Source of the DNA: Stephanodiscus triporus
Taxonomy: Eukaryota; Bacillariophyta; Thalassiosirophyceae; Thalassiosirales; Thalassiosiraceae
Assembly (NCBI GenBank): GCA_036939755.1
Contig: JALLAZ010000168.1
Span: 1-23,052, forward strand
Length of the DNA stretch: 23,052 nucleotides
Direction of reading: 5' to 3'
The position numbers were made by a program, and so were the translations under genes. How positions within the stretch are numbered: the first letter of the stretch is position 1; every line of letters starts with the position of its first letter. The notes beneath the pieces were generated by a model. That model saw nothing but the letters and a program-made list of their open reading frames with translations, searched no databases and was not told the origin of the DNA. Positions 366 through 21,219 of the stretch are shown here, in pieces.

Positions 366-1575
366 GTGAACACCAGCTTGAGGACCATCTCCCCAGTAAC
401 ATCGGGTATCCCTCAGGATTTTCACTACCACCCGTTTCGATTTAGTGATTGGAATGAAGAAGCTTGGATGCAACAACAGGCGGCTGAGAGAGCGGAACGT
501 ACGAAGGAGTGCAAACGTAGGTATTACATGGACTATGGTTCATTCAAGCTTCCACATCCAATTATGCCCAAACCCAAAAAGAGGGATGACAGAGTTCTAT
601 CCTAAGATGGGTTTTCTTCATATCTACTTATTATTGATGAGGCCTCCTGGTATGTGTAGGTCCTTCTCACCAACATGAAGGAACCTCCATTGGAATTGAT
701 TGATCGACACCTTTCTGTCAAGCTTTGGTCATGATCAGGGCGGGTCTATTTGGACAGATCAGGGTGGGAAAATTGCTCGATCGTTCATATTTTCCGATCT
801 GGTCCTTCAAACACATACATATGTATAAGAACCTACGGGTGTTGATAGCCCTTCCCACACAAAACGGCGCTGTGGAGGTTTATAATAAGAAGTTGGCTGT
901 CAGGGCCCAAAACACGGCTTGGGACTCCCAGCGAAGTATTGGTCTGCTGCGCTCATACATTCAGTGTATCTCCACAACCGTATGGTTCACAGCACCACTC
1001 AGAAAACGCCTTTTGAAAGGATTCTACATTTATCCTGACAAGGCTTTCCATGACTGGTGGGTGCACCACAAGAAGCAGCCTCCACTGATGAAGTTATCCC
1101 TACACTTTCTTCAGAAGGTCACCATCCAAAAATCAACAGTAATATCAGACCTTGACACAATGCATCAACAGTTCATGCATTTGCCGATTCGGAATGGGCC
1201 ACGTGTGTCAAAACAATACTTTCATTTGGGGGAACTGTTATTTGCTTAGCAGGAGATACTTTTGCCTGCAAATCAAAATTAGAACCTACCGTGGCCGTGT
1301 CATCGCCAAAAGCAGAGTTTATGGCGGCCTATGATACTGGCAAAATGATCCTATTCATTCGAAGTGTTCTTTGGGATCTTAATACACCGCAAGAGGCGAC
1401 GACGATACTGTCACAAAAACCCACGCCACGCACGTCGACCAAGACCTCATTACGAAAGCACTTAATCGAGTGCTGTTGTATAGGCAAGCTGATTTCTCCA
1501 CCAATGTATTCACTGGTACACCACATCATTGTTGGGATGTATACTAATGATACGACGGCTTTTGAACGTAGATAG
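366..1575 (+). mobile_element. Decayed Ty1/copia retroelement: integrase and RNase H remnants, RT deleted
   Basis: This is a non-functional copia-type pol relic. The integrase core is spread over three frames. A DEAS block has its Asp codon at 636-638, IWTDQGG has its Asp codon at 757-759, and QNGAVEVYNKK has its Glu codon at 875-877, matching the order of the copia D-D-E triad. A conserved copia stretch beginning AKYWSAALIHS follows at 931, again in a shifted frame. RNase H begins near 1183 with ADSEWA and continues with the AVSSPKAEF block and a copia-like pol tail with a TPHHCWDV motif. Only about 150 bases separate integrase from RNase H, so the reverse transcriptase core is missing. In-frame stops and at least three frameshifts are visible. 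Similar material may extend left to about 190. A TGTTA at 1630 just after the pol end could be an LTR start, but no matching 5' LTR was found here. Copia membership is confident; both boundaries are not. Confidence 0.82.
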
Positions 1576-1754
1576 ATAAGCTAGTCACATCTTATCAAGT
1601 CTCCTCCTATTGCACCATGCTGATGGGATTGTTATAGTAGTTGTTGTGTGTTGAGTTGTGGCTCGTGTGTTTTACCTATATTGTATAGTAGATCATCACC
1701 TAACCCATGGTGACATTTTACCCAATTTTAACATAACGAATAATGCAAAAGTTC
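1576..1754. other. AT-rich tail of the copia relic / spacer, no gene seen
   Basis: There is no credible coding sequence. TGATGGGAT followed by TGTTATAGTAG at 1630 is reminiscent of a polypurine tract and LTR start in copia elements, but a second LTR copy is absent from the window, so the LTR reading is tentative. Confidence 0.3.
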
Positions 1755-2285
1755 GACGTGACCCTCCTACGGCAACACAACCATCACAACCATGACCACT
1801 GCCGGCGGAAATAGTCCCCTAGAGTATCGCAGGATGCTCTACGTCCCGTGCTGACACGTTGGATTGATCGGAGACAACCCCACGATCAAGCGAATATGCT
1901 TTTTGTGGGGGGTTGTAGGGTTTATGGCCCTCAAAATGCTCCTCGGTTTCGGCGATGATGCGCCACCACTGCTTCAGAGCGTTTTGAGGGCCATGCACAC
2001 TATAACCCCCCACAAAAAGCATATTCGCTTGCTCGGGGGGTTGTCCNGGCCCTCAAAATGCTCCTCGGTTTCGGCGATGATGCGCCGCCACTGCTTCAGA
2101 GCATTTTGAGGGCCATGCACCCTATAACCCCCCACAAAAAGCATATCCGCTTGCTCAGGGGGTTGTCCCCGATCAAGCCGACGTGTTGGCGCGGGTTGTA
2201 GGGCATCCTGTGAGACTCTAGGGGATCATTTCCGCCGGCGGTGGCCATGGTTGTGATGGTTGTATTGCCGGAGGGGGGTCACGTC
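1755..2285. mobile_element. Foldback / MITE-like palindromic element with nested hairpins
   Basis: The segment is a large imperfect palindrome. It starts GACGTGACC at 1755 and ends GGTCACGTC at 2285. The outer arms (about 1755-1925 and 2116-2285) are inverted copies with scattered mismatches, sharing blocks such as ACAACCATCACAACCATG and CCGGCGGAAAT. The centre holds two tandem copies of a 122-bp unit (1926-2047 and 2048-2169), and each unit is itself a hairpin bounded by GGCCCTCAAAATGCTC and its complement. No transposase or significant ORF is encoded, so it would be non-autonomous. No clear target-site duplication was found beyond the arms, and the superfamily cannot be assigned. The single ambiguous base at 2047 lies exactly at the junction of the two units, which suggests an assembly problem there. 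Confidence 0.85.
1926..2169 (+). repeat. 122-bp tandem duplication inside the foldback element
   Basis: Two near-identical units start with GGCCCTCAAAATGCTCCTCG at 1926 and 2048 and end with GGGGTTGTCC. They differ at a handful of positions, for example CCACCACT versus CCGCCACT and CATATTCGC versus CATATCCGC. The N at 2047 sits at their junction, so true copy number could be higher if the assembler collapsed units. Confidence 0.9.
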
Positions 2286-2491
2286 ACCAATATTTTTTTA
2301 TTCTTCTCTTTCTCGCAAGGGGAAATGTTCATTACTTGCACAGCGTGTTCTACAGTAGGTACTCTATCATAATAGGTATTGCACATACGTACGCTCATAA
2401 CCCCCCTCACCGACCGACCACACACTATCTCTACACACACTCAAACAAACACCGATCTCTTGTCGCGCCAAGCAAGGCAATATAAGTAACA

Positions 2492-3520
2492 ATGGCGGAA
2501 AACGGCCTCTACCCCTCCCGCCCTCCTCGGCCCAGGACAGTGACTATGAGCAGTAGCAGTAGTAGTAGTAGTAGGAGGAGGAGGCGCCGCGGGTGCTGCT
2601 GCATCCCCCCCCTCGACTTCCCCGAGCACCCCCTCGCCCACCCCCTCGCTCCCTACATGCGCAAGGGGTCGGCCGCGACGCCCACCACCTGCGACAGCAG
2701 CGGCGACGACGGCTATCGCGAAGATGATTACGGCTACGACGACTACTACGACATGGGCCGTGAAGGAGCAGACGACCGCCCGTCGCCCGCGTGGGGGATT
2801 CGTCGGGGAGACGAATCATCGTGGTCGTCTTGCTCGCATTCGCATTCGCATTCGCATTCGCATTCGCATTCGTCTCCCCGCGCGGTTGTCGCATCTCCGC
2901 CGTCGTCGGTCCACGGCTCCCTCGAGCGCGCTCCCGACGACGATGCGTTCGAACTGCAATTCGACCGATCGGGAGGAGGACTAGGAGGGGATGGGATGGG
3001 AGGGACGACGACGTCGGACCACGACGAGATACGCGCATATGCGGAGGAGGTCCTACGACGGGCCAACGACGTCGCAGTCGTCGGGGGAACGACGACCGCC
3101 TCTCGATCGTCGTCGTATTCGTATTCGTCGTCGTCGTATTCGCCCGTCGTCGTCGCCCTCGTCCGGCGCGGCCGCGGTCCGCGCTCCGACGCCGTCCCCC
3201 CCCCCGCGCGCCCCGATTCGCCCGCTGTCCGGATCGTCACATCGGCTGCGCCCGCCGCGGCGATCGTCGTCGCGCTCGTCGTCGCGCTCTTGACGGATGC
3301 CGCGCGCTCGTCGCGGTCCGTCGCGGCGTCGTCCTCGTCCTCGTCCTCCCCGTCGTCGTCGTCGGTCGAGTGGATCCGCGCGGTGGAAGTCTTGCGCTGG
3401 TCCCTGACGATTGGATCGTTCTTCCTATCGATCGCATCCCTCTGTCTGTCGATGCGGACGCAGAAGAGATTTCTCCGCAACAACAAAATCACGCGGCGCC
3501 GAAAATACAACCTGGCATGA
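2492..3520 (+). CDS. Ser-rich, low-complexity putative two-pass membrane protein
   Basis: This is an uninterrupted 342-codon reading frame with a favourable start context (AACAATGGCG). I do not recognise a family. The N-terminal two thirds is low complexity, with Ser runs near residue 20-28, a CCC cluster, an acidic-Tyr stretch, and six His-Ser pairs near residue 115-128 encoded by a perfect GCATTC hexamer repeat at 2836-2871. Two hydrophobic segments follow, at about residue 245-268 (Ala/Val-rich) and 307-325, separated by a Ser-rich linker. The protein then ends in a very basic tail. Because the DNA is rich in TCG/GTC/CGA triplets and poor in stops, other frames and the reverse strand are also open for 160-270 codons. 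This frame was preferred for its start context, its length, its two membrane segments and the clean basic C-terminus. Whether it is expressed is uncertain. Confidence 0.55.
   Translation: MAENGLYPSRPPRPRTVTMSSSSSSSSRRRRRRGCCCIPPLDFPEHPLAHPLAPYMRKGSAATPTTCDSSGDDGYREDDYGYDDYYDMGREGADDRPSPAWGIRRGDESSWSSCSHSHSHSHSHSHSSPRAVVASPPSSVHGSLERAPDDDAFELQFDRSGGGLGGDGMGGTTTSDHDEIRAYAEEVLRRANDVAVVGGTTTASRSSSYSYSSSSYSPVVVALVRRGRGPRSDAVPPPARPDSPAVRIVTSAAPAAAIVVALVVALLTDAARSSRSVAASSSSSSSPSSSSVEWIRAVEVLRWSLTIGSFFLSIASLCLSMRTQKRFLRNNKITRRRKYNLA
2836..2871 (+). repeat. GCATTC hexamer microsatellite coding for His-Ser
   Basis: Six perfect tandem GCATTC units lie inside the Ser-rich reading frame and encode alternating Ser and His. 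A 6-bp unit preserves frame when copy number changes, so length variation would be tolerated. Confidence 0.9.
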
Positions 3521-3683: not shown

Positions 3684-6600
3684 TCAACCACCGACGAATT
3701 TGCTTGCCGTGATCGGGCCGGCATACTGTTCCGAATCGATGGCTCGGATGTACATCACGTTGAAGATCTTGTTAGGGGCCTTGAATTGCATCGTCACCGT
3801 CGTCGAGGTGCCCGCGCTCGTCAGAACCCTCCTCACCCTCGGTTGGCAGCTCGTCACGGAGTACAACGGATGGCAGTTGACGTATATTTCCACCGCTTTT
3901 ATGGTCTGTCGACCGGTGGGGAACATGATGCCGCTATCGTCGGCGTGTTTCGTACGAGCTCCGTCGCTTACCTGTATCTCCGCAACGATATATTTCCCAT
4001 CGCTTTTTTGGGTATAAGTTATCGTAGTGCAGAGAATGTCCGGCCCGCGACCATTTTTGTATGGCATCTTGGCAACTTTGGCCGCATGCAAAAGCATAGG
4101 AAAGACTTCGTTTATCACATCTGGAAGTGTGTCACACGTCTGGTAAAAACTTGTCCCGATTTCGAAGAAGAACGAAGCTACGCCGAGCAAGCCGTACATG
4201 GTGTCTATCGTGCTGCCATCAAATCCATCTTGTGAAATGCAACACAAGATATTGCGTGACATGTAAGATATAAAGAAAACATTCACGATCCCAATCTTGG
4301 AAGTATGCACATCACAACAGTGGTCCACTCACACTTGCGATTGGGCATTTCTGGCGCCCAGAGACTGTAGTTGCCGTACGACGCAAATTTGCGTCCGAGC
4401 GCGCCCAGAGCGGCGTTGTTGGGGGTGCGCTGATTTGCGAAGCCCCACGGCCACCCGATGTAACGTCCGTGGGAATGCACGTCGATGAATATTCCCTCGC
4501 TATCCTCGGCGAACGGCACGTTCATTAAATTTTCGGAAACTGCAACATTCCCCTTCCTCTGCTGGTCCGGAAATATCGATTTTGCGTAATTCAAAATTGC
4601 CTCCGTCTCCATCTCGCTCGTCGCGGCCGGGCCGCGGTACACCACCGACGAGCAGTCGGTGCTCGACGAGCATCTGTTGTCGGCCGTGGTGATGCACTGG
4701 CCCCATTTGAAGGGGAAGTTGCGATTCGGATCCACCCCGTACAATTCGCTCGCGCAAGTGCCTTTGTTGCGATTCTTCTTCCACAAAGTCTTATCTCCAC
4801 CTGTCTCGAGGTAATTACGTCCGTCGGGGTTGGCTGTTGAAAATACATTTTATTTGATGAAAGATTAGTTTTGAGAAAGGCACACTCTGACGAAAAAGAA
4901 GAACACCAGAACACAGAACACAGAACATACCATGAAAGATCAAGTGGATTTCGGTGTCTACTCTCCCAATAAAAAAGTACCACACCGATCCAACGAAAAA
5001 CAAAAAGAAAAACAATTAGGCATTACTCCCACACGCACACACATTTGTCTAAAAAAAGATGGACCATCATCATCGTATGTCGTCGTTGTAACTCACAGTC
5101 TACAATCCATGTGACATCAGGGTCGATTTTATACCGTTGAAGAAGATACTCTGCGAATCGCATCACTAAAAATGAAAAGGGCGAATATTGCATTGCGATG
5201 GGAGTTATGATGGATGCACTTGAGAGCGAGAGAGAGATAGATAGAGAGATCAAAAGAAAGGAGGCGCACTCACTCGTCTCGCCGGTGGAAAGCTCCCGGG
5301 CGTGTATGCTGCCTACGACAAACATCTTCCCCTTCCCCATGGCGCTAGCGACCTTGTTCTTATTCGTGATTTTGAAGACCTGCAGGCGCTGCCCCTTTTC
5401 CACTGTCTGGTAATCCGCGAGCACATACTTCGACGTCAGGGAGGGATATTCCGCGAGGAGGTCATCAACGGTGCGTCTGGTCCCCTCCTATGTGGGGTAT
5501 CCGGTTGATTTGGGGCGACATGTGCTGAGTGAGAAAGCGCGTTCGTGGAAGATGCGAAAGTTCAATAGTAAAATACACGCGCGTACCACCGTCCGATAGC
5601 ACTCATATCCGGGAAAACCCGCATAACCCGTGCCCGGTTTGACTATTTCGTAAGGTGTAAGTTCGGTCGGCGGGGGGGGCGGCGGGGGGGGGGGGGGGGT
5701 CGTGCGCAAAAGAAGAAGATCAGATTATCGAATATATGCGATGAAACTTCGAATGAGAGACGTCCCGACCGAAGAAAATAAATCCCCTCCATCCCAAATT
5801 ACATACCCCCATTCCACGCCCCAAAAATTTCACTCACATTTCGAGTTGTAATCTACGGGCAAAAGCACAGAGCACTCCCGCCGGTCGTCTTGGGTCGAAG
5901 TCGAATGAACAGTGATGAGCAGCTCCTCTTGATCCTCGACTTCCACTCTTTCTACATAATCATCTTCCGCCGCCGCCGGGTCATCCATTATTTCGCCCTC
6001 GTAGTGGGCCTCGTCGTCGTCGTCGTCGTCGTCGTACCGATCGTCGTCGTGGTAGTAAAGATCTCCCTCCTCCTCCATCATGTCAAGCTCCTCCTCGCCG
6101 ACAACGAACTTGTCGTTGCCGTATCCGCCGATGACCCCCTCCGCCCTGGGTATCCGGTCGTAGTCCGTCGTCGTCGGTCCCCCCCCCCCCCTCCTGCTCG
6201 CGCCTGCCCTCGCGTACGACGAGGACGACAGAATCGCGACCAACAGCGAGAGGGCGACGAGGAGCGCGATCGCGGCGATCGCTGCGCCGCGCCTCTCCTC
6301 GTCCGCCGTCGCGCTGCGATGGCGGGGGTCGTCGTCGCGGTCGTCGCTAGGATCCGAAGGGCGACCGCCGCCGCCCCTCCCGCCGGGATGCCGTTCCGTC
6401 GTGGCATCCGCCGTCGCCGTGACGTAGACCTCCGCTGTTGGCGAGGAGGAGGAGGAGGAGGAGGAGGAGGAGGGCGACCGACCCACCCCTCCCTCCGGAT
6501 CGTCGTCGTCGTCGTTGGCGGCGTCGGCGGCGGCTTGTTGCGCGTCCGATGCATCATCCGCCATCGAGGATGACGACGACGACGACGACGACGAGCTGGA

Positions 6601-9515: not shown

Positions 9516-11293
9516 TTACATCGAACCCTCCGGGAGAGAACTTCCTTCACCGGGACGACGATTCATGTGATTATTAGTGAACGGAATCATGCCCTGCGGA
9601 TGAGGCTGTTGGGGATGATACATCGGCTGGTCCTGATTACCCATCCCATATGTCATTCTGCTCACATAATTGGCATATTCAGCCGGGTAAACGCCTGGGG
9701 ACAGGAAATTCGGCCACATGGCGATGCTCGCGTGCTCCACGATTGGAAAGCCTGGAACTACTGACGATGGCAGCATGAATGGAGTGAGGACCCCCGGGTG
9801 ATATAACGAGGCCATGGGCATCCCATTGCCCTGTGCGTTGGGCAAGATTTCCATGAAACGGCCTTTTCCTCCGGTGTTCCACTTGAAGCCTTAAAAATAT
9901 TATTTGATTTCGGCGCGCAATATGCGATGTTTTGACATGAGAGACAAAGAGGGAGCAAAGGAAAACCCCCGACAGCAATGCATTAGAAGCAGAGCAACTC
10001 ACCGATCGAATTCAACCTGTCAATCTGCTCATCGGTCAGGTTGTTCTTTCGTCCCTCTATCAGATCCTTGTATTTCTTCCGCTGGCTATTCACCCACTGC
10101 GCCAGTGGTATATTCTCCTTCCACTGCCAGGGAACGTTGACGTGCCCGAACCTTTGTCTGTAATCCAATAAGGAAAGGAATCGTTCTTCCCATGACTTGA
10201 CCCCCCGCCGTTCTCCCCAATCGACCCCAAGGTCCTCCAGTAATTGAATCCGCTCGGCACTCAAGGCAGGAAGCTTATATTCCTGAGCGTTACGGTACTG
10301 CGTCACCTGCGTCTTGAGCCACGACCCTAGCTTGTCATCGGCGCTGAAGGGGACCCTGACGTGTCCGTGCTTCTCCTTAAATTCCTTCAGCAGCCCATAA
10401 TTTTTGAGCCACTTCTCAGGACCCGGACCCGAGTGAGGATCCCAGTTGAACTTCACTCGATTGAGCAGCTGGACCTTATACTCCTCGAGATCCCCCCTCC
10501 TCTTCAGCTTTCTCTGGCGGCATGTCCACCAGGACATATTGTAAACTTCCTTCGCCTCCGATTCCGACATCCCCTCAACGTCAGAGAAGGTGATGGTGCG
10601 CTTGAAGTTGGAGTGCCCCTCGCGCTCGTAGAACTGAACGAGCTTATTGTAGTGGTCATTCCAATGCGACGGTTCAAGGAGGAGGTCGTCCGCATCATTT
10701 ATGGCGTTCTGTACCAAAACACGACTGACGTTTTCATAGATCCCCTGAGCCTCTTCGACCTTCTGCTGACATCTCTGGAGTTCGGCCTTCAGACTGACTA
10801 GGCGGGTGAAGGCGGCGAGGAGGATCTTTGAGTCTTCGCGGCGGCGCTTATCAGCGGCGAGGAAACGGGCCTTATCGTCGGGGGAGAGGGCATCCAGACA
10901 GGCACTTTTGATGGAAAAGGGATCCTTTGTGTTCGAAGTGGGCTTTGAGTCATCCCCGTCGCCCCCTTCCTCTTCATCGCTGTCCTCGTCCTCCTTATCC
11001 ACGCTGCCTCCAGATGTGAAATCGCTGGGGGACGGCGAAGCATCCTCGCCGTCTTTCCTACCAAAATGAGCACCTTCATTGTCGTCGCCAGACGTCTGAA
11101 CGCGCTGTTTCTTCGTTTCGCCCCCTCCTCCATTGCACTCCCCGTTCGCCTCCCCCCAGGCCGTCTTCCTTTTCATATCTTCGTTGACCTCGGACGAATT
11201 CACATTCGCATCGCGCTGGCGCCGCTGCTTCTCCACCTCCTCCCAATCGCTACCCCTCATCGAACTGAAATTAATGTTGTCCATCAATAACAA
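9516..11293 (-). CDS. Protein with three helicase-associated (HA) domains, 2 exons, 554 aa
   Basis: The exons are 11293-10003 and 9889-9516, with a 113-nt intron (donor GTGAGT, acceptor TTTTAAG) whose phase restores the C-terminal GFKW of the last repeat. Residues 1-130 are charged low complexity with an acidic run near 98-115. A probable coiled coil covers about 150-200. HA domains follow at about 211-284 (divergent), 294-359 and 367-434, each with the family pattern of an initial Trp, a GH(V/S) core, a central Trp near QR or QV, and a closing G-(V/F)-x-W. The last 120 residues are rich in Pro, Met and Asn. HA domains were named from bacterial helicases, but here there is no helicase core. 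Such stand-alone HA proteins are expanded in diatoms and are thought to bind nucleic acid; the function of this one is unknown. A second ATG lies nine bases downstream of the chosen start. Confidence 0.85.
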
Positions 11294-11670
11294 ACTTGTT
11301 CCAAGAGTATGCCTATCCTTGTTGAGTTGAGAGTAGCGGTTTCATAGTAAAATTGTTGCCCAGAAGTTCCGTGCACCCTAGAGGTTTCGCGTGTTACTCT
11401 ATGGTAAGTGGTAAGGGATCGACTATTATGTTCTCCATCTGAATTTGTATGTGTCTTGATTTGGGATATCTTATTTGCAATTAGTATTAGTATTATTTAT
11501 TGGTCACTACGATTGATAATTATTCAGGAGAGAGGAGGGTTCGCACCACATGTCGTACAATAGAGAGGGGAAGGTTTGTTCAAACTCTGCAAACTGCCCA
11601 TACTTTTGTGGGTGACTGTAAGAGGTTGCGCATACTACCGCCTTAATAACAATTGAGACTGGCCGTACCG

Positions 11671-11758
11671 TAAGGGTTCATTAGGGGTTAAATAAGGGTT
11701 CGTTAAGGGTTCGATAAGGGCTGAATAAGGGTTGAGTAAGGGCTAGCTAACGGCTAGG
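11671..11758 (+). repeat. 11-bp periodic array, 8 units of TAAGGGTTNNN
   Basis: Eight consecutive units of exactly 11 bases run without a gap: TAAGGGTTCAT, TAGGGGTTAAA, TAAGGGTTCGT, TAAGGGTTCGA, TAAGGGCTGAA, TAAGGGTTGAG, TAAGGGCTAGC, TAACGGCTAGG. The first eight bases are conserved, the last three vary. Confidence 0.9.
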
Positions 11759-12321: not shown

Positions 12322-15300
12322 TTAGTCCAGGTGTTTCTTCTTTTTCTGCTGATACTTCAAACACCTGTCAAGAACAGATACACGAAGTGCTATTGATGAC
12401 AGAGATGCCTCACCCATAGCTCGAAATTGCTTTGGAATACAGGCATAGAGTTGTGTGGCCTGAGAGTGGAGCCAATCGGGGTTGATAGCATCTTCCAGTA
12501 GCAGGACACACCTCATCAAAGACTCCGGACCCTGTGCATCCTTGACAAAATTGCGCCACAAAGCAGCTGATTCAGGAGTCCATGATCCATTCCTTGATAA
12601 TCCAACAGAGCCCCGGGGAAGGGCAGATTCAATTAGCAGTATTGCACCTTTCAATTGACTGAGCAGCTTTTCGCTGTTAGAAGCATGGGGTCTTGTGAAA
12701 GCACACTCAAATATCTCAGTTTTTGTTGCAGGAGTGGATCTGGCACGTTTTTTTGTGTTCAAGAATTGGTATGCAAACATACTCTCCAATGAGGGAGGCG
12801 TCATATCATTTGCAGTCGCGAAGTCTTGAAGTACTTCTTCCTGGGGATGAATAGAGGGAGGGTGGGGCAGTTAGACGAAAGTCAGTCGCAGAATATTTAA
12901 GAACACCATTGAAAAAAGAAAGAACAGTTGACTTGCCTGCACCTCCACGTTAACTTTGCTTGGCTCCACAACCCTATTGGGTACTACCCACTGGTCGAAC
13001 CTGCTGCTCCAATTCTTGAAGTGAACAAAGTATCCATTTACTTTACCTGTGTCGGAGTCTTTGGATACATCGACAATTACAGCGTCCCATAGAAATTTCC
13101 CATTTTCGGACTCAACAAGCACGTCTTCATCCTCGACAAAAGGCTGGAACAAACAGAAAGTATGAGAATTTATGTCATATTTGAGGCAGACTTTGGAAGA
13201 AAGAAGGGTAAGAAATTAATACTCACTTCACCATACTCAACTTGCTCTTCGGAGACTGACTTCGAGTTGTCTGGGGGAGATATTGCCTCGACAGCATCTG
13301 GCTTACGGAGAAGGCTCCGCCCATACAACAAAGTGGACCATGACCTATCTTTTACAGCCTTCGCCGATTCTGGGAAAGCCTCTTTCAATGTATCACACAA
13401 CGGGTGTTTGCCGAGGCATACCATCACGGATGCAATTTCCTCTGGCTTATCGAATCTGTGCCATTGTTTTTGAGTTGACGCTGACTCAGGGTTAGAGGTA
13501 TCTTGGCAAACAAAGAGAGATGTTGGCTCGGCACTGAACACCCAGTATGTCCTCCCAAATGGATCTGTTCCGATGGGAATGGTTTTTCCCACGCTAAAGG
13601 CTGCTATTCTTGTCATATTTGCTCTGTGAAAAGCTCGACGCTCAGCAAGCAGCTTCTCCTTCAGACTACGGTGAGCAGCAATTGCACATACTTCATGAGC
13701 TGAGAGGGAACCAGAAAGAATGGATAGGTTCAAATCTTGGCGGAACTTCAGCTCCGATTGGAATCCAGTGGGATTTCTTGGAAGGAACTGCACAAAAGGG
13801 ATGACCAGAAAAGAGTCAGGACATCTTGCGAGTGGTTTCGATTCGGCAATCAATAGCTCAACTTACCTGCTGCATTGCAGAGTCGAAGTTTTTGATGGCA
13901 TTGTCATCGCTCTTAAATTTTGAAGAGACGAGCTCGCCTCCTACACGGACTCTGATGGTGAGAAATTTCGTTCCTCGCTTTACGATGGAGTTGTCATTGC
14001 TATCCGTAATCTCTGCTATCATGTAAGTGGTTCGTTTATGCACAGCATGTGGGAATATTTCTCTCCACTCCTGTTCGTTGGGAGTGCGACAAAGAGGTGC
14101 ACCTAAAGCTACATCAGAAAGGCCGCAATAATGACATGCTTCTCGACAGCGGACTGCGGATAGATCGAGGCCCTCCTCCTGGTTACACAGGACGCTCTTC
14201 ACAATGGTTTGAATAAAATCCTCATCAAATGTCGCCGCAGTTGATTTCAGTCCGTTTCCGATGTAATATCCCATCAGGGCATCCTCTCTTTTCTTTTCAC
14301 GTCTCGTCTTCGCAAGGAAGCTAGACTCGCGCTTTCTTCGAAGCACATCTTCTTCTGAAAGCAAGGTGTCTTTCGAGGACTGAACAGTGGCGTGTGCGGC
14401 ATTGCTGCTGGCTTCATCAAGCCCCACGATTGAACTATTGAAACTTATCTCCACGTTGGTTGTGCGATCATCGGTAGAAGCTTCCTCTCTGGGATCTTTC
14501 GTTGTGATTTCAGTCGGAGGCTCGTCTTTTATTGGCGACTCTCCCTTCTTGGCCTTGTCTTCGATAATCGATGGAATTTCAGAAAGTGGCTCCCCTTCTT
14601 CGGAAGAATCAGTATCATCGTCAGAAACATTTGCAACAATATTTTTCGCGGCTCTGGCCCTCCAAAACGACATCATGTCAGTTGCGAGGCGAGAAGCTTC
14701 CTTATTTTCGAGTTTACTTGGGAGGGGAGAGGGAGCGAGCGATATTTCAATCAATTGTACGAAAACGGCGAACGAAAAAACAACCTGTGCGAAAATAGGA
14801 CGAATCCCGCGCAACTTAACTCACGAGGACAGCTCTTGGAGTTCATCCGACTGCGAGCATTTGGTCACAAGAAGCATAAGCAACTGGATCCATTCTTCTG
14901 CTGCCAAGTCTTCTGGCGGGTTTGTCAGAGAGATGCACACTGATAATGGAAGTTACAGTAAGCGATAGAGGGCGTTAGCCGACATCAAGTGATTATTGTG
15001 ATCGTCAAGCAAATGCAGATTTTTCAGCTGAAAGCACTGTTGCAACAACTGAGGTCGTATGCTTTTGCTGCCATCAAAGCATCTCTCTAGAAATGTGTGG
15101 CCACTACTCACCGGAAATTGTATCCTTGAATACTCCACTTGAGAGTGCAGCTTGAGCAGCTTTGTCGCCGATCAGTGGGTTGATAGCAAGTGGAAGTGCA
15201 CCTCCTACAGTGCCAGAATCACGGCCAAACCCATATCCAGGACTTTCTGCTAAAGCCTGCAGACAGCGTAGTGGTTCCACTGGATTGCCTAAAATAGATG

Positions 15301-18300
15301 TATCGACAGATTCTACTCCCCAGTACTCAATGTGGCCAGAATAGAGGGCTTTAACGCGATAGATAATTGAAGGCTTGCCGTCTTCGGTGAAAAGAAATTT
15401 GCATGACTGAACAGTTCCAGAAAATATTTCATTCTGAACTTTCCGTCCAATACGAGGATCCGCAGTCAGCCAACTCCTACCTGAAACACATCGCGGGCAA
15501 TACCAGTCACCACTAGGCACATGGTCTAATGCTGGCTTGAGACGACTCATGTTGTATTTTCCCTCACAAGCATCACAAAGGAGTACCATGGAAAAGACAT
15601 CACTCTCGTGGTGGTCAATACACATGTCATCATCCAAGTACTCCAATTCAGGTCTTTCCATCGTCGGTGCAAGAACCCAATCAAAAAACAAGCGCTCAAA
15701 TATTCTCGACATTTCTTCTGCGGAATTAACAATACTGTTCGAGGAATTGTTAATGATAGAGTTGTGTACAATTGTGCGAACTTTCCTTCCGACTTCAGCT
15801 ACTACCTCCTCTATTGCTGGGTCATCATGATTTGATGAGAAACTCTGACCAGCTTCATGAAGGAAAGTTCCAACATCGTACAAAGATGATGGATTCATAA
15901 CAGTTTCATAGTATCTTTGAAGGGAAAACACAAAAATAGTTATCGTAACATGGTAGAAACATGTCAAAAATATCACTCATTCAATAGCGCTCACCCTGGA
16001 TAAAGCTGGGGGTCAACCGGATATATAAATTGATCAGCTGAGTTTGTTGCACATAGAGCACGAATCACTGCCAGACATCGACGGATTAAATCGGGGGCAG
16101 CAATAACGTCTTCACAGAAATCATAGTCTGCCTTCGTGTCGGCAACTTTGTCATCTCCCCCTGCAACCTTACTGACAGCCTTGTTCCCAACCTGATTAGC
16201 AGGCTTAATCGGCTTGTTCCTCCCATGAAACTCCATTATTGCTGCTGCTTCGTCCCCATTGACAGTTTCCAAAATCTCAACGAAGCGCAATGCATCTGCT
16301 TTGGCTCTGAACCTTAGCCCCATCTTGGGAGAGTACCAATTTCGATCTGTGCGTTTGTCTGTAGGATTTAGTCGCGGAATACGGCGAATTTGCCAGCCAT
16401 CAGGAAAATCTTCAGCTTGCTCTGTGGGAAGATGGGAATCTTTCTTGCTAACAGTTGGATGATTGGTTGTGTTCATGGTCTCTACTGCAGTGGATGGACT
16501 TTCAGAAGAAGAGTCAGCTTCTGATTTCTTCTCTTCTTCCCCAGCCATATTAGTTACAACAGCTGAATTGCTTGATTGGTCAGAAAATGATGTGGTTGTC
16601 ACTAGATTGTCTTCTTTCTCTGGTTCGTTAAATCCAGACTCATTGGAGTCATCATTGTATGAAGAGTGTGTCCGAGATGTGATTTCTTCATTTGAAACTT
16701 TCATTTGCGAGGAAACCCTTGATTCGTTGTCAGAATCTTTCCTGTTAGTATTATTTTTGCCATCCTCATCTTCTTCGTCATCATCTTCGCAATCCTCTTC
16801 GTCCTCATCTTCATCGTCATTTGCATCATCATCTGCACTCTTCCTTTCCAAATCCTCTTTGAGTCTCAATGCAGCTTCCATATACTCTTCCTTTGACAGC
16901 TCTAATGCTTTGAACTGCTCCTTCGACATTTGATGTTTTTTATATAAGCCCATCATTTGACTTGTAGGCTCTTGGGTTGCACTAGTCAGTGATTGTTTTG
17001 CAGCTTTTTGAACGTCAGTTGAAGTCAGAGGAAAACATTTTTTCATTGTTGAATCAAGTACACCGACTACAAGGTCTTTTGCTTTATGCAAATCTGCTTT
17101 ATGCGATTCAAGAGCACCGGGAGCGATGTTATTGCTACTTTCTGAACGTTCCAATATAGCAAGACATTTTTCAAGGTCGTCAATGTAAGATTCTGGTTCT
17201 TTCATCCCAGAAGATATGTGCCTCAAAGCGGCCAAGGATTTCGTCACGTTATCCTTCATGTGAAGAAGTGAAGTCACAGGCTTCGACTTAATGTTGTGAA
17301 GATAGAATCTCCAGTCTTCTTGGCAGGGCACAGAAGAAGGTGTACTTGGAGTGCTCAACATTGCTCTCACTACACGCCTTCGAAACTGACTGGAAGCTTC
17401 ATCATCGTGATTTTCGAGACAATGATAAAAAATCACCACTGGAGACTCTTCAATCTTCTTCCATCTCTTTGCCTCTTTAGAATTCGGGTGGCCACCGCTT
17501 CTGTAACCTTTTACTAGGTTTGCTGCCTCCTGCTTGGAATATCCGAGGTCTTGAATCCATGGTTTCAAAATGGACACATGAGCGCAACACACAAAAAGAG
17601 AAAACAGAGACACGACAAATAAAAAAAAATTAACGCACCTGTGAGAACATCGTATATTATAACCATTCTCGCGATTTCTCGCCAGCTCCATTCTGTTACT
17701 GGGAGGCAAGATACATCTGCATCTTCTTGTGGTCCACCCTCTGTGCCGTTCTTTCCAATAGGTTCCAATTGGGTCGATGATGAAAGGATTTTCGTGAGGC
17801 TGTGGTCGAAGAGATGGCAGGATATGGATAAGGCATTTTTATACAGATAGAACAACACAATACTTCGCCGTCGCAATAAAGACTCACCCTGGGGAAATCA
17901 CTTTGCAAAGACCAATTGCGATTTCTTTGAACAACTCCATGGCCTTCAAACTCTTTTGTTTATCACAACTATTTGTACTTGTTCTTAGACAAACTATGGC
18001 ATCTTGTAAGGCGTCCAATGATGGTATAGAAATCTTTGAGAAGACATCGGAAAATGAGTGAAGGAAGTCCCAAATCCTAACAATCTCAACATCGTACGTC
18101 CGAGAAAGTGGAGGAAGCATTGCGCCAAATGGAACCAGAACAGTTGATGCGGTGTCCATAAAGGAGGGTGTCGTAGAACGATCGATGGTGTTGCCCACAA
18201 TTAGTTCGGTAGCCTTTCGGCGCCTGACAAACTCTTTAGCCATTCCCCTGACTAAATTCATAATATTCCTCTCTCTCATCATACATGCCTCTTTGAAGAG

Positions 18301-21219
18301 ACGATCGTCCATCTGACTGCTGAGCTGCGCAAGCCTCTTGTTCACTCGCTCCCTCTTTTTCTGATCATCCTCTTCTACTTTGAGTCGCCTTTTCTCCAAA
18401 ACTGCAGCTTCCAGAAGTTTTCGTTTCATTTCCTGGAGGCAGTATGTACAACCACAGTTAGCTTCGCTCGGTGAAACTGGAACAAAAAAAGCAACAGACC
18501 AACTGAATATGGCACCAATGCAGAAGCAATCACGCTACTTACTCTTTCCTCTTCGACTTTCGCCTTGGCATCGCCATGCTTCGTTGCCTTGCGTGCCTTC
18601 TCTTGCTTCTTATGATGCTGCTTTTGGTGACGAATCTTGGCCTCGTGAACCCACGCCTGGTTGCCTCCCGAAGCCGACCGATGGGCATGGAAGACGTAAG
18701 AAGGAGCAAACTCCGTGCCCGGCAGTCCCTCCACCAGGCGCTCAATCTTGGGAATGAAAAATGAATTCCTATTTTCCATCATTCTTTGAAAGAGGAAACA
18801 CACGAACGGTGATCGTAAAATTGCACGTAAATGTCGAAAAAAAATCTTCGTCAAAGGCACTCACGTGGAAGGCGTGACAATCTTCCGCTTATTTCCGGTA
18901 TAAGGCATCTGCGCTCTCTCTTTCTTCATTGCGGCTGCCATCCAAGACTTTTCTATTGACGCCGAATCATCGCGACAAAGAAAAGGATTAGCCGCAAAGG
19001 GGGAAATGGTGGCAATTCGCACGTTGGCAAGAGTCAACGAAGCAGCCTTGGACCGCTTCTTGGCATATTCGAGCTTCTTCTGCATATCTGCAAGTTTTTC
19101 CCTCAGTTCTGCCTCCTCTGGAGAGATTTCTGCCTTCACTGTTTCCGTCTTTTCGGCATCCATCTGATCATTAGTGTCATCTGTGCCGTGACTCTTGCTG
19201 TCATCGCCATCTATGGTATTGATGTTGGGGTGGGGCACTTTCTCTTTCGCTCTGTCATCTCTACGCTTCTTGTTGGCTGCATCGAGCTTTTCTTTGACTT
19301 CGTTGAATCCCTCGTTTCGCGCAGCATGAAGTGTTTTTAATGCCGCTTCATACATGATCTCATCAATGAGACCCAGAGAGAGCAGTGTTCTCCCCCAAGC
19401 CTCGAGAGGAGATTTTGCCAGCAAAGAACGAACTGGTTTGCCATTCATTTCCGTCACGAGCCCGTCCCCTGTTTCGATAGGTGGGCAGCCTGAGAGATTT
19501 TTAGGGCAACAAGCCGTCAAGTGATTAACAATGATACGATGTAGAATGCAACAAACTCTGTCAACAAAAATCACCCAACTCACCTTGGTAGGCCACAACA
19601 ATGTCAGGGTCAGGAAAGACAGCAACCTCAGTAACCCCGTCATCATACTGTATCGTGATGTTGCAAATAGCATTTTTGACATTTTTTGCCTGCTTTTCTA
19701 TCGGCTTGACACTGGTAATCGACCCCCCGTACTTTTTGCACTTGTCGAAACGCACACTGACCCTCATGCCAACTTCGGGGAAGCCCAAGGGCTTGTTGCC
19801 CTTCTTCGACGACAAGGGAACCGCGATCGTGTCGACGTCTCCTCCCAGGTGTGCCGAGGCAATGTACGGGTCGAAGGGACACGAAGGCTCCAACACCTTG
19901 TCCTCGTCCACTCCCTCGCCCCACGTGACGCGAAAGACGGGACCGTCCCCCAGATTTTCGACGTTTTCCTTCTCGCTCGATATCTTATCGTCCACTAGCG
20001 CGGGCTCGAGGCCGTTCTCGGATTTTGCCCTCGTCGGTCCGTCCTTCTTCGCCTGTTCCTCCCGATACTCCCGCAGGCTGCTCCCGTCAAGAATGTCGCA
20101 TCGCATCTTGATAACGCGTCCGTGCACCGGGCTGAACTCGAACCGATCGCACGAGAATCCCACGGGGTATATCGAGAGCGGACTGGAGTACAGGGCGTCG
20201 AGGGGGGCGGCGTTGTACTCGGGCTTGATCCTGCCAAAGCTGCGGATGGTGTGCGAGTCGGCGACCGCGTGCGGAAGGCTTGTGACGGCCTCCTGAAGGG
20301 TCGTACGCGCCTCCCACGCGGCTGCGGCCTTCTCGGCGGAGATCTCCGGCATGCCGTGGAGGCCTGCGGACGGTGACGGCCTCTTGGCCCCCTTCTTTGG
20401 CGCGGGCTTCCTCGCGGCCGCCTGCTTCGACGAGGTCCCCTTCTTAGCGCTCCCCTTGCTGCTTTTGATGTTCGTCGCCACAGCCATGACGTCCTCGGAG
20501 TCGCTCCCAGCGACGATGGTGGCGATGCAGGCGTCTCCGTCGGAATCGTCGTCGTCGTCGGAGCCCGTGTCGCTGCCATTGTCGGCGGGGGAGGGAGCCT
20601 TGCGCTTCCTAGACGCGGCGGTCGCCTTGGATGGGGACTTCTTGACCGGGGCCTTGGCGGATGATTTCTTGGGGGCCGGGGCGCTCCTCTTGCGCGATGC
20701 CGCTTTGGGTTTCGACCCCCTCGTCGTCTTGCTAGCGAGGGGCTCGTCGTCGCTAGAATCGTCATTACCCATCTTCATGATGAGACGCAGTTCCTTCCCC
20801 CTGGGCGGTCCGGGATTCGGATTAATCACCTGAGCGGTGGCGATGGCATGATTATTGTTGCCGGGGCTTGGCCTGGGGTCTCGCTCATCATCGCTGCTGC
20901 TGGAGTCGCTGTCGCCGCCTCCCACGGGGGGACGGAATGTCTTGCCGCGAGGCTGGACGGGCGCTGCCACGGCGGCGGCCGGCTCTTCATCGCTGTCGTA
21001 CTCAGAGCCTTCGTCGTCCTCGCTGGCGACGTCTTCTTCTTCATCTTCATCTTCCTCTTCCTCTTCGCTCGACTGCTCATGAACACTTTGACTGTTGGAG
21101 GTATTCATGGTCATGCTCGGGCGGCCATAGCTGTTGTAGCCCACGGCCGGTACGTGGGGTGGGGCAACCCCCGCCCCGAAGGAGTCGGAGTCATAACTCT
21201 CGCTGTCGGAATAGTCCAT
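12322..21219 (-). CDS. Giant multi-domain chromatin reader (FYR, DDT, MBD, bromo, PHD, WSD, chromo barrel), 12 exons, about 2605 aa
   Basis: The exons are 21219-19584, 19489-18865, 18783-18543, 18432-17888, 17799-17639, 17549-15995, 15914-15112, 14939-14825, 14716-13867, 13787-13227, 13143-12937 and 12840-12322. Every junction keeps phase, giving 2606 codons. Domains in order, with approximate residues: acidic and Lys/Ser-rich region 1-300; FYRN at 335-390 (LSIYPVGF) and FYRC at 422-460 (GPVFRVTWGEG); Tudor-like 484-546 (ITIQYDDG); helical block 565-625; DDT from 947 (VEIVRIWDFLHSFSDVF); WHIM1-like 1016-1069 (SWREIARMVIIYDVL); acidic stretch; MBD/TAM 1450-1510 (GWQIRRI, NWYSPK); bromodomain from 1550 (FIYPVDPQLYPG, then YYETVMNP, conserved Asn in IINN); degenerate PHD 1680-1730 (GDWYCPRC); Tudor-like 1740-1795; Cys cluster near 2080 (CHYCGL); WSD motif near 2245 (PIGTDPFGRTYW); chromo barrel 2365-2433 (FLWDAVIVDV, NWSSRFDQWV); helical C-terminus. 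The inferred role is a nuclear adaptor of an ISWI- or SWR1-type remodeller. It could in reality be two adjacent genes, but unbroken phase argues for one. Confidence 0.85.
12841..12936 (-). other. Probable GC-AG intron (last intron of the chromatin gene)
   Basis: The donor reads CAG|GCAAGT at 12937/12936, the classic consensus of GC-AG introns, and the acceptor is CCCCAG ending at 12841. Phase 0 is kept on both sides. A weaker GT donor six bases upstream (GAG|GTGCAG) is also in phase and would remove two residues (Val-Gln). Confidence 0.65.

What the first reader, a model, noticed from the sequence alone, without database searches (positions are those of the whole stretch)
12322..21219. One polypeptide combining FYR, DDT/WHIM, MBD, bromodomain, PHD, Tudor-like, WSD and chromo barrel modules
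Each domain is recognisable from motifs and all eleven coding introns are phase-consistent, so the domains appear to be on one chain of about 2605 residues. Animal BAZ2 has TAM/MBD-DDT-WHIM-PHD-bromo, and plant MBD9 (as I recall it) combines MBD, PHD, bromodomain and FYR. I know of no described protein that also carries a chromo barrel and this order. It would read methylated DNA, acetyl-lysine and methyl-lysine together, a candidate single-protein hub for remodeller targeting in diatoms.
Basis: partly seen in the sequence, partly recalled or inferred. Interest (0 to 1): 0.85.

Follow-up and report, generated by a model that had tools for sequence, protein, structure and literature searches.

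The report
Diatom giant multi-reader chromatin protein
A diatom gene encodes one very large protein that joins many chromatin-reading modules with parts that in other organisms hold on to a nucleosome-moving motor; it is real, shared by many diatoms, and seems to be a diatom variant of proteins known from plants and animals.

Summary
On the minus strand, 21219-12322, twelve exons and eleven phase-consistent introns encode 2605 residues. All eleven junctions are continuous in a Thalassiosira protein and in an MMETSP transcript ORF, so it is one chain. Relatives with an organism name are diatoms; 16 of 38 aligned proteins, the window's included, span all 11 core modules in this order. The chromo barrel scores over Pfam's cut-off; FYRN, DDT, WSD, bromodomain, PHD and MBD are weak in the window protein; FYRC and WHIM1 were never reached. 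Corrections: the MBD is not core (4 of 38); the PHD-like module has lost its His/Cys zinc pair in 124 of 124 readable relatives; the acetyl-lysine asparagine is poorly conserved (4 of 36); an N-terminal Tudor-like barrel was overlooked. Best explanation: a diatom MBD9/BAZ2-like accessory subunit that tethers an ISWI (perhaps SWR1) remodeller through DDT/WSD and aims it with methyl-lysine readers. Partners and ligands are inferred. New variant of a known kind; nine literature searches listed no description of it.

The parts
12322..21219 (-). Gene: 12 exons (21219-19584, 19489-18865, 18783-18543, 18432-17888, 17799-17639, 17549-15995, 15914-15112, 14939-14825, 14716-13867, 13787-13227, 13143-12937, 12840-12322), 2605 aa
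   Evidence: no stop, all junctions continuous in P0001 and transcript ORF P0002
20083..20250 (-). FYRN (residues 324-379)
   Evidence: Pfam FYRN 0.0013, below cut-off; 16 of 21 relatives at E<=0.1
19849..19944 (-). FYRC-like stretch (residues 426-457)
   Evidence: motif and position after FYRN only; Pfam FYRC 0 of 21; AlphaFold confidence low around it
19591..19782 (-). N-terminal Tudor-like barrel, Tudor 1 (residues 480-543)
   Evidence: five strands, blocks of pLDDT 90-97 with one loop at 69 and the end at 80; SETDB1 8.0, PHF1 7.5, RDM15 7.4 (Z), while an unrelated myosin chain also reaches 7.2; PHF1 Tudor first by Foldseek, E 0.015, none at E<=0.001
19317..19457 (-). Conserved block of unknown fold (NGKPV..SPLEAWG..LGLIDEI)
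   Evidence: nearly invariant columns; Pfam gives only a sub-threshold UBA_RNF31 match
18678..19031 (-). Conserved block of unknown fold (GPF..NPF..KRKIVT..EGLPG..YVF), split by intron 18864-18784
17980..18117 (-). DDT domain (residues 940-985)
   Evidence: 22.6 bits, cut-off 22; under cut-off in 4 of 8 relatives' segments, not found in 4
17449..17708 (-). WHIM1-like region (residues 1047-1103), split by intron 17638-17550
   Evidence: motif W-x-E-(I/V)-A-R after a DDT and strong conservation; Pfam WHIM1 not reached (this gene)
16267..16401 (-). MBD (residues 1453-1497), lineage-limited, in the linker
   Evidence: profile of 4 sequences, 16 of 17 PDB matches at E<=1 are MBDs, best AtMBD6 1.2e-4; present in 4 of 38
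15665..16098 (-). Bromodomain (residues 1554-1671), split by intron 15994-15915
15482..15637 (-). PHD-like module with zinc-site-1 ligands lost (residues 1681-1732)
15287..15460 (-). Tudor-like barrel 2 (residues 1740-1797)
   Evidence: strands with pLDDT up to 97; besides SETDB1 Tudor (E about 0.09) the barrel matches are generic, EF-P, eIF5A, CarD; no Pfam match
14080..14154 (-). Conserved Cys knuckle (residues 2082-2106), C-x3-C-x2-C
   Evidence: the three Cys are C in 32, 35 and 35 of 35 rows with letters
13434..13592 (-). WSD, D-TOX E motif (residues 2243-2295)
   Evidence: below cut-off (23.2 vs 25.4 for the segment); 25.3, or 25.9 with neighbours, marked over cut-off; 15 of 21
12958..13143 (-). 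Chromo barrel, MSL3/MRG type (residues 2365-2426)
   Evidence: 48.1 bits, cut-off 28; MRG15 1.7e-9
12346..12801 (-). Conserved C-terminal region without known family
   Evidence: no Pfam match

Best explanation
A diatom non-catalytic remodeller subunit of the MBD9/BAZ2 kind. Shown: one chain carrying FYRN, Tudor 1, DDT, bromodomain, PHD-like, Tudor 2, WSD and chromo barrel in a fixed order, conserved in many diatoms. Inferred: DDT plus WHIM1/WSD clamp the ISWI ATPase (SLIDE module) and linker DNA; the C-terminal chromo barrel and Tudor 1 dock on methyl-lysine (most likely H3K36me or H3K4me) of transcribed genes; the bromodomain, PHD-like and Tudor 2 block forms one composite surface; in Thalassiosira and Skeletonema an MBD in the flexible linker adds DNA contact. 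The net effect would be to place ISWI, and possibly SWR1 as MBD9 does, on active genes.
For: One chain: and MMETSP-labelled ORFs P0002, P0012, P0020, P0041, P0063 among the relatives. Fixed order: 16 of 38 rows, window included, span all 11 core modules; the other 22 are all shorter entries (1458-2004 aa against 2233-3024). DDT and WSD. Methyl-lysine cage: chromo barrel W in 25 of 26 rows with letters, Y/F in 26 of 27, W in 24 of 26; Tudor 1 F 16 of 21, Y/F 20 of 23, Y/F 20 of 21 (that these are cage positions is recalled from MRG15 and PHF1). Possible partners in the same assembly: SLIDE at three places, YL1_C at two (the family is shared by SWR1 and INO80 subunits, recalled). Arabidopsis MBD9 holds MBD, BRD, two PHD, FYRN/FYRC, DDT and WSD and bridges SWR1 and ISWI (passages of PMC10451976; of PMC6659704). 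H3K36me3 lies mainly in promoters and genes in Phaeodactylum (abstract of PMC10421102).
Against: No interaction or ligand was tested. WHIM1 and FYRC were not reached by Pfam in the window protein, 21 relatives or the segments, although WHIM1 is found in another gene of the assembly; DDT is found in 1 of 21 full-length relatives and 4 of 8 segments. That other gene, on contig C77, is a clearer DDT-WHIM1-WSD protein and may be the main ISWI partner. The fourth MRG15 cage position is not conserved. I had no MBD9 sequence to compare, so orthology is untested.
Confidence: 0.6

Rival explanations
1. It is a scaffold of an acetyltransferase/SWR1-type complex (MRG15/Eaf3-like targeting through the chromo barrel) and does not bind ISWI; DDT/WSD are relics.
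For: The chromo barrel is the best-scoring Pfam module; MBD9 itself purifies with SWR1 and TRA1 proteins (passages); YL1_C homologues exist; a separate ACF1-like protein could serve ISWI.
Against: The DDT and WHIM1 region has letters in 38 of 38 aligned sequences and WSD in 35 of 38, so it is kept over long divergence.
Confidence: 0.25
2. It is a histone demethylase of the KDM5 type, as one database entry (P0006, Seminavis robusta) is named.
For: The PHD-like module best matches KDM5 PHD structures; P0006 carries the name 'specific demethylase 5C'.
Against: No JmjC, JmjN or ARID family among the matches of the window protein or of 21 relatives, P0006 included.
Confidence: 0.02
3. Gene-model fusion: two or more neighbouring genes wrongly joined.
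For: No cDNA of this species was available; 22 of 38 aligned entries are shorter and lack at least one core module, and P0014 and P0017 end within the bromodomain.
Against: All junctions are continuous in transcript ORF P0002 and in P0001, and in P0003 but for gaps near two junctions; 16 of 38 span all core modules; MMETSP-labelled P0063 (2184 aa) and P0041 (2172 aa) carry FYRN, bromodomain, WSD and chromo barrel by precomputed Pfam.
Confidence: 0.03

Closest known systems
Arabidopsis MBD9 (At3g01460)
   Same: FYRN/FYRC, DDT, bromodomain, PHD, WSD and (here in few species) MBD on one chain (content of MBD9 from a passage of PMC10451976)
   Different: The diatom protein adds a C-terminal chromo barrel and two Tudor-like barrels, has one PHD-like module lacking zinc-site-1 ligands where MBD9 has two PHDs, and its MBD lies between DDT and bromodomain in one subgroup only. 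MBD9's order was not checked. The review says MBD9's MBD cannot bind DNA for lack of key residues.
Animal BAZ2A/BAZ2B (TIP5)
   Same: MBD(TAM), DDT, WHIM/WSD, PHD, bromodomain; accessory to ISWI (recalled; abstract beginnings in the listing)
   Different: BAZ2 order is TAM-DDT-WHIM-PHD-bromo (recalled) with no FYR, Tudor or chromo barrel; here the bromodomain precedes the PHD-like module
MRG15/Eaf3/MSL3 chromo barrel proteins
   Same: Chromo barrel (MRG15 1.7e-9), three aromatic positions
   Different: No MRG domain among the Pfam matches; the barrel is one module of a giant protein
Plant PTM/DIR17-type Tudor
   Same: One of 21 relatives matches PTM_DIR17_Tudor at 0.0047
   Different: Weak single match; which stretch it covers was not shown

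Membership tests
MBD9 family | FYRN and FYRC | tested here: inconclusive
   FYRN 16 of 21 relatives at E<=0.1, FYRC 0 of 21
MBD9 family | DDT and WSD | tested here: met
   DDT segment 22.6 bits over cut-off 22; WSD marked over cut-off in the genome search (25.9 with neighbours) but below it
MBD9 family | bromodomain | tested here: met
   window protein 0.009, under cut-off; P0001 23.1 over 21.7 and 19 of 21 relatives matched; BPTF match
MBD9 family | two PHD fingers | tested here: not met
   one PHD-like match only, and it lacks zinc-site-1 ligands
MBD9 family | MBD | tested here: inconclusive
   present in 4 of 38; MBD by profile
MBD9 family | common descent with plant MBD9 by sequence or tree | not tested
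   no protein named MBD9 or from a plant is named in the listings of the three protein searches; no tree was built
BAZ2 family | TAM-DDT-WHIM-PHD-bromo order | tested here: not met
   bromodomain precedes PHD-like; MBD follows DDT
canonical PHD finger | Cys4-His-Cys3 zinc ligands | tested here: not met
   ligand 5 is N (122) or S (2), ligand 6 R (123) or L (1) in 124 relatives; window: N and R
chromo barrel | Pfam score over cut-off and aromatic cage positions | tested here: met
   48.1 vs 28 bits; W, Y/F, W conserved, fourth position not
ISWI accessory subunit | binding to ISWI | not testable with these tools
   needs purification or binding assay

The most novel reading that the evidence does not exclude
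Diatoms evolved one protein that does the work of several separate remodeller-targeting subunits: an MBD9-like ISWI/SWR1 bridge permanently fused to an MRG-type H3K36me reader and a PHF1-like Tudor, with a PHD fold re-purposed after losing its first zinc site, and onto which one lineage has additionally grafted a DNA-methylation reader.
Probability: 0.3. Interest if true: 0.75.

Novelty: new variant of a known kind. Interest (0 to 1): 0.55.

Why it matters
My searches found no account of how diatoms target nucleosome remodellers. This family is widespread in them, looks single-copy in this (possibly incomplete) assembly (only one other WSD match), and offers one gene whose tagging or knockout would test whether H3K36 methylation, ISWI and SWR1 are coupled in stramenopiles. 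The conserved loss of one PHD zinc site and the lineage-limited MBD are natural experiments on reader evolution.

Tried and rejected
Rejected: KDM5 demethylase label (no JmjC, JmjN or ARID); gene-model fusion; my own first automatic model, which mis-set introns 4-5 and missed the GC-AG intron, and its intron-2 acceptor, mended by comparison with relatives.

Led nowhere: the FYR part of the AlphaFold model is of low confidence and its fold matches cover only the Tudor part, so FYRC stays unproven. Tudor 2 gave mostly generic SH3-like barrels and its part of the model was barely covered. The UBA_RNF31 match at residues 565-597 is below cut-off. WHIM1 segments: I printed ten relatives' segments and gave eight of them to Pfam (P0008 and P0012 left out); none matched WHIM1. 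Non-diatom relatives: three protein searches gave 127 proteins; I count all but P0038 (a SNF2/CHD-like protein) in this family. Every one whose name shows an organism is a diatom, but most are unnamed, 13 of the 133 matches were not listed, and candidates must share short exact words, so absence outside diatoms is not shown. The PDB profile search printed 60 of 102 matches. No paper describing this protein appeared (listings of at most 20 papers each, of up to 152 found; subscription journals not covered).

Full report
What is there. The window belongs to an unnamed 21.65 Mb, 1324-contig assembly (contig C168); the closest relative of the protein, at 69-72% identity, is from Thalassiosira sp. 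AJA248-18, so I infer a Thalassiosirales diatom. The gene lies on the minus strand, ATG at 21219, stop at 12322. A splice model with eleven introns of 79-172 bases (ten GT-AG, the last GC-AG) is open throughout. My first complete model gave 2600 aa. Residue numbers in this report's parts are those of the 2605-aa model; earlier calls use the 2600-aa one (five less after residue 754).

Modules. Pfam on the whole protein finds the MSL3-type chromo barrel far over its cut-off and, below cut-off but in a sensible order, FYRN, DDT, bromodomain, PHD, WSD and Tudor-knot. MBD, FYRC and WHIM1 are not found there. Segments alone raise DDT just over its cut-off (22.6 vs 22) and give WSD 7.8e-5 and MBD 0.016, both under cut-off. 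Of 21 relatives scanned, 19 match chromo barrel, bromodomain and PHD, 16 FYRN, 15 WSD, 1 MBD, 1 DDT, none FYRC or WHIM1. Of 8 relatives' DDT-WHIM1 segments (8 of the 10 printed), 4 show DDT at E<=1, all under cut-off, and none WHIM1. In the genome-wide searches at E<=0.001, WHIM1 matched only contig C77 and MBD only contig C341, not this gene, while WSD and the chromo barrel did match it. A profile of 38 sequences matches solved PHD, chromo barrel and bromodomain structures. A profile of the four MBD sequences matches 17 PDB sequences at E<=1, 16 of them MBDs, best AtMBD6 at 1.2e-4.

Distribution. Searches returned 127 proteins, of which I count 126 in this family. All whose names show an organism are diatoms, among them Thalassiosira, Cyclotella, Skeletonema, Seminavis, Nitzschia, Cylindrotheca, Epithemia, Fragilaria, Mayamaea, Amphora, and by taxid Thalassionema frauenfeldii and Entomoneis paludosa; most have no name. 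In the 38-row alignment (window plus P0001-P0037), rows with letters in at least 60% of a module's columns are: FYRN, FYRC and Tudor 1 21, DDT and WHIM1 region 38, bromodomain, PHD and Tudor 2 36, Cys knuckle and WSD 35, chromo barrel 24, MBD 4; 16 rows, window included, hold all 11 core modules. The other 22 are all shorter entries (1458-2004 aa, against 2233-3024 for the 16); whether they are incomplete gene models was not tested.

How it probably works. DDT with WHIM/WSD is the hallmark of ISWI accessory subunits (established knowledge; a title on SLIDE binding DDT proteins stands in the reference list seen). MBD9 in Arabidopsis, with the nearest module content, purifies with SWR1 and with ISWI and sits at active genes (passages), and binds acetylated H4 and H3K4me1/2 peptides (abstract passage of PMC6695207). 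The assembly encodes SLIDE proteins at three places, one with a stop inside the match, and YL1_C proteins at two. The chromo barrel keeps three aromatic positions in nearly all rows and Tudor 1 keeps three in most, which fits methyl-lysine reading; H3K36me3 is mainly in promoters and genes in Phaeodactylum (abstract). I therefore infer a remodeller-targeting subunit. A separate DDT-WHIM1-WSD protein on contig C77 shows that this is not the only candidate ISWI partner.

Novelty. The parts are known and the overall kind (multi-reader DDT/WSD remodeller subunit) is known. The combination with chromo barrel and Tudor barrels, the uniform loss of a PHD zinc site and the lineage-limited MBD are new as far as the listings of nine literature searches show. 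I read passages of PMC10451976, PMC6695207, PMC6659704 and PMC9998398, and the abstract and outline of PMC10421102; no whole paper.

Noticed in passing
L002 (G000:C341), 967-3183: Open frame with an MBD (25.8 bits), a Tudor-like stretch and the start of a cytosine methylase-like domain by eye; possibly DNMT5b, which PMC9998398 describes in diatoms with CpG methyl-binding and Tudor domains (passages).
   Followed up: partly
L001 (G000:C77): Separate DDT-WHIM1-WSD protein of ACF1/BAZ1 type: WHIM1 and WSD by Pfam, DDT by eye, in an open frame of over 1000 codons.
   Followed up: partly
window 11670-11742: Degenerate telomere-like repeat, period 11, consensus TAAGGGTTCAA, about 6.5 copies, downstream of the gene.
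   Followed up: no
window 9983-11341, minus strand: Protein with three Helicase associated (HA) stretches, Pfam 1.3e-43.
   Followed up: no
window 4283-5487, minus strand: Zinc carboxypeptidase (Peptidase_M14) in two exon-like pieces.
   Followed up: no
window 704-1575, plus strand: Two overlapping frames that look by eye like a broken copia-type retrotransposon RNase H end; no Pfam match at E<=0.01.
   Followed up: no
window 1926-2168: Tandem repeat of 122 bases, two copies, 95% matches.
   Followed up: no
window 14080-14154, minus strand: Three conserved cysteines (C-x3-C-x2-C) followed by GLSD..LG.PL in nearly all aligned relatives; possibly a zinc knuckle.
   Followed up: no
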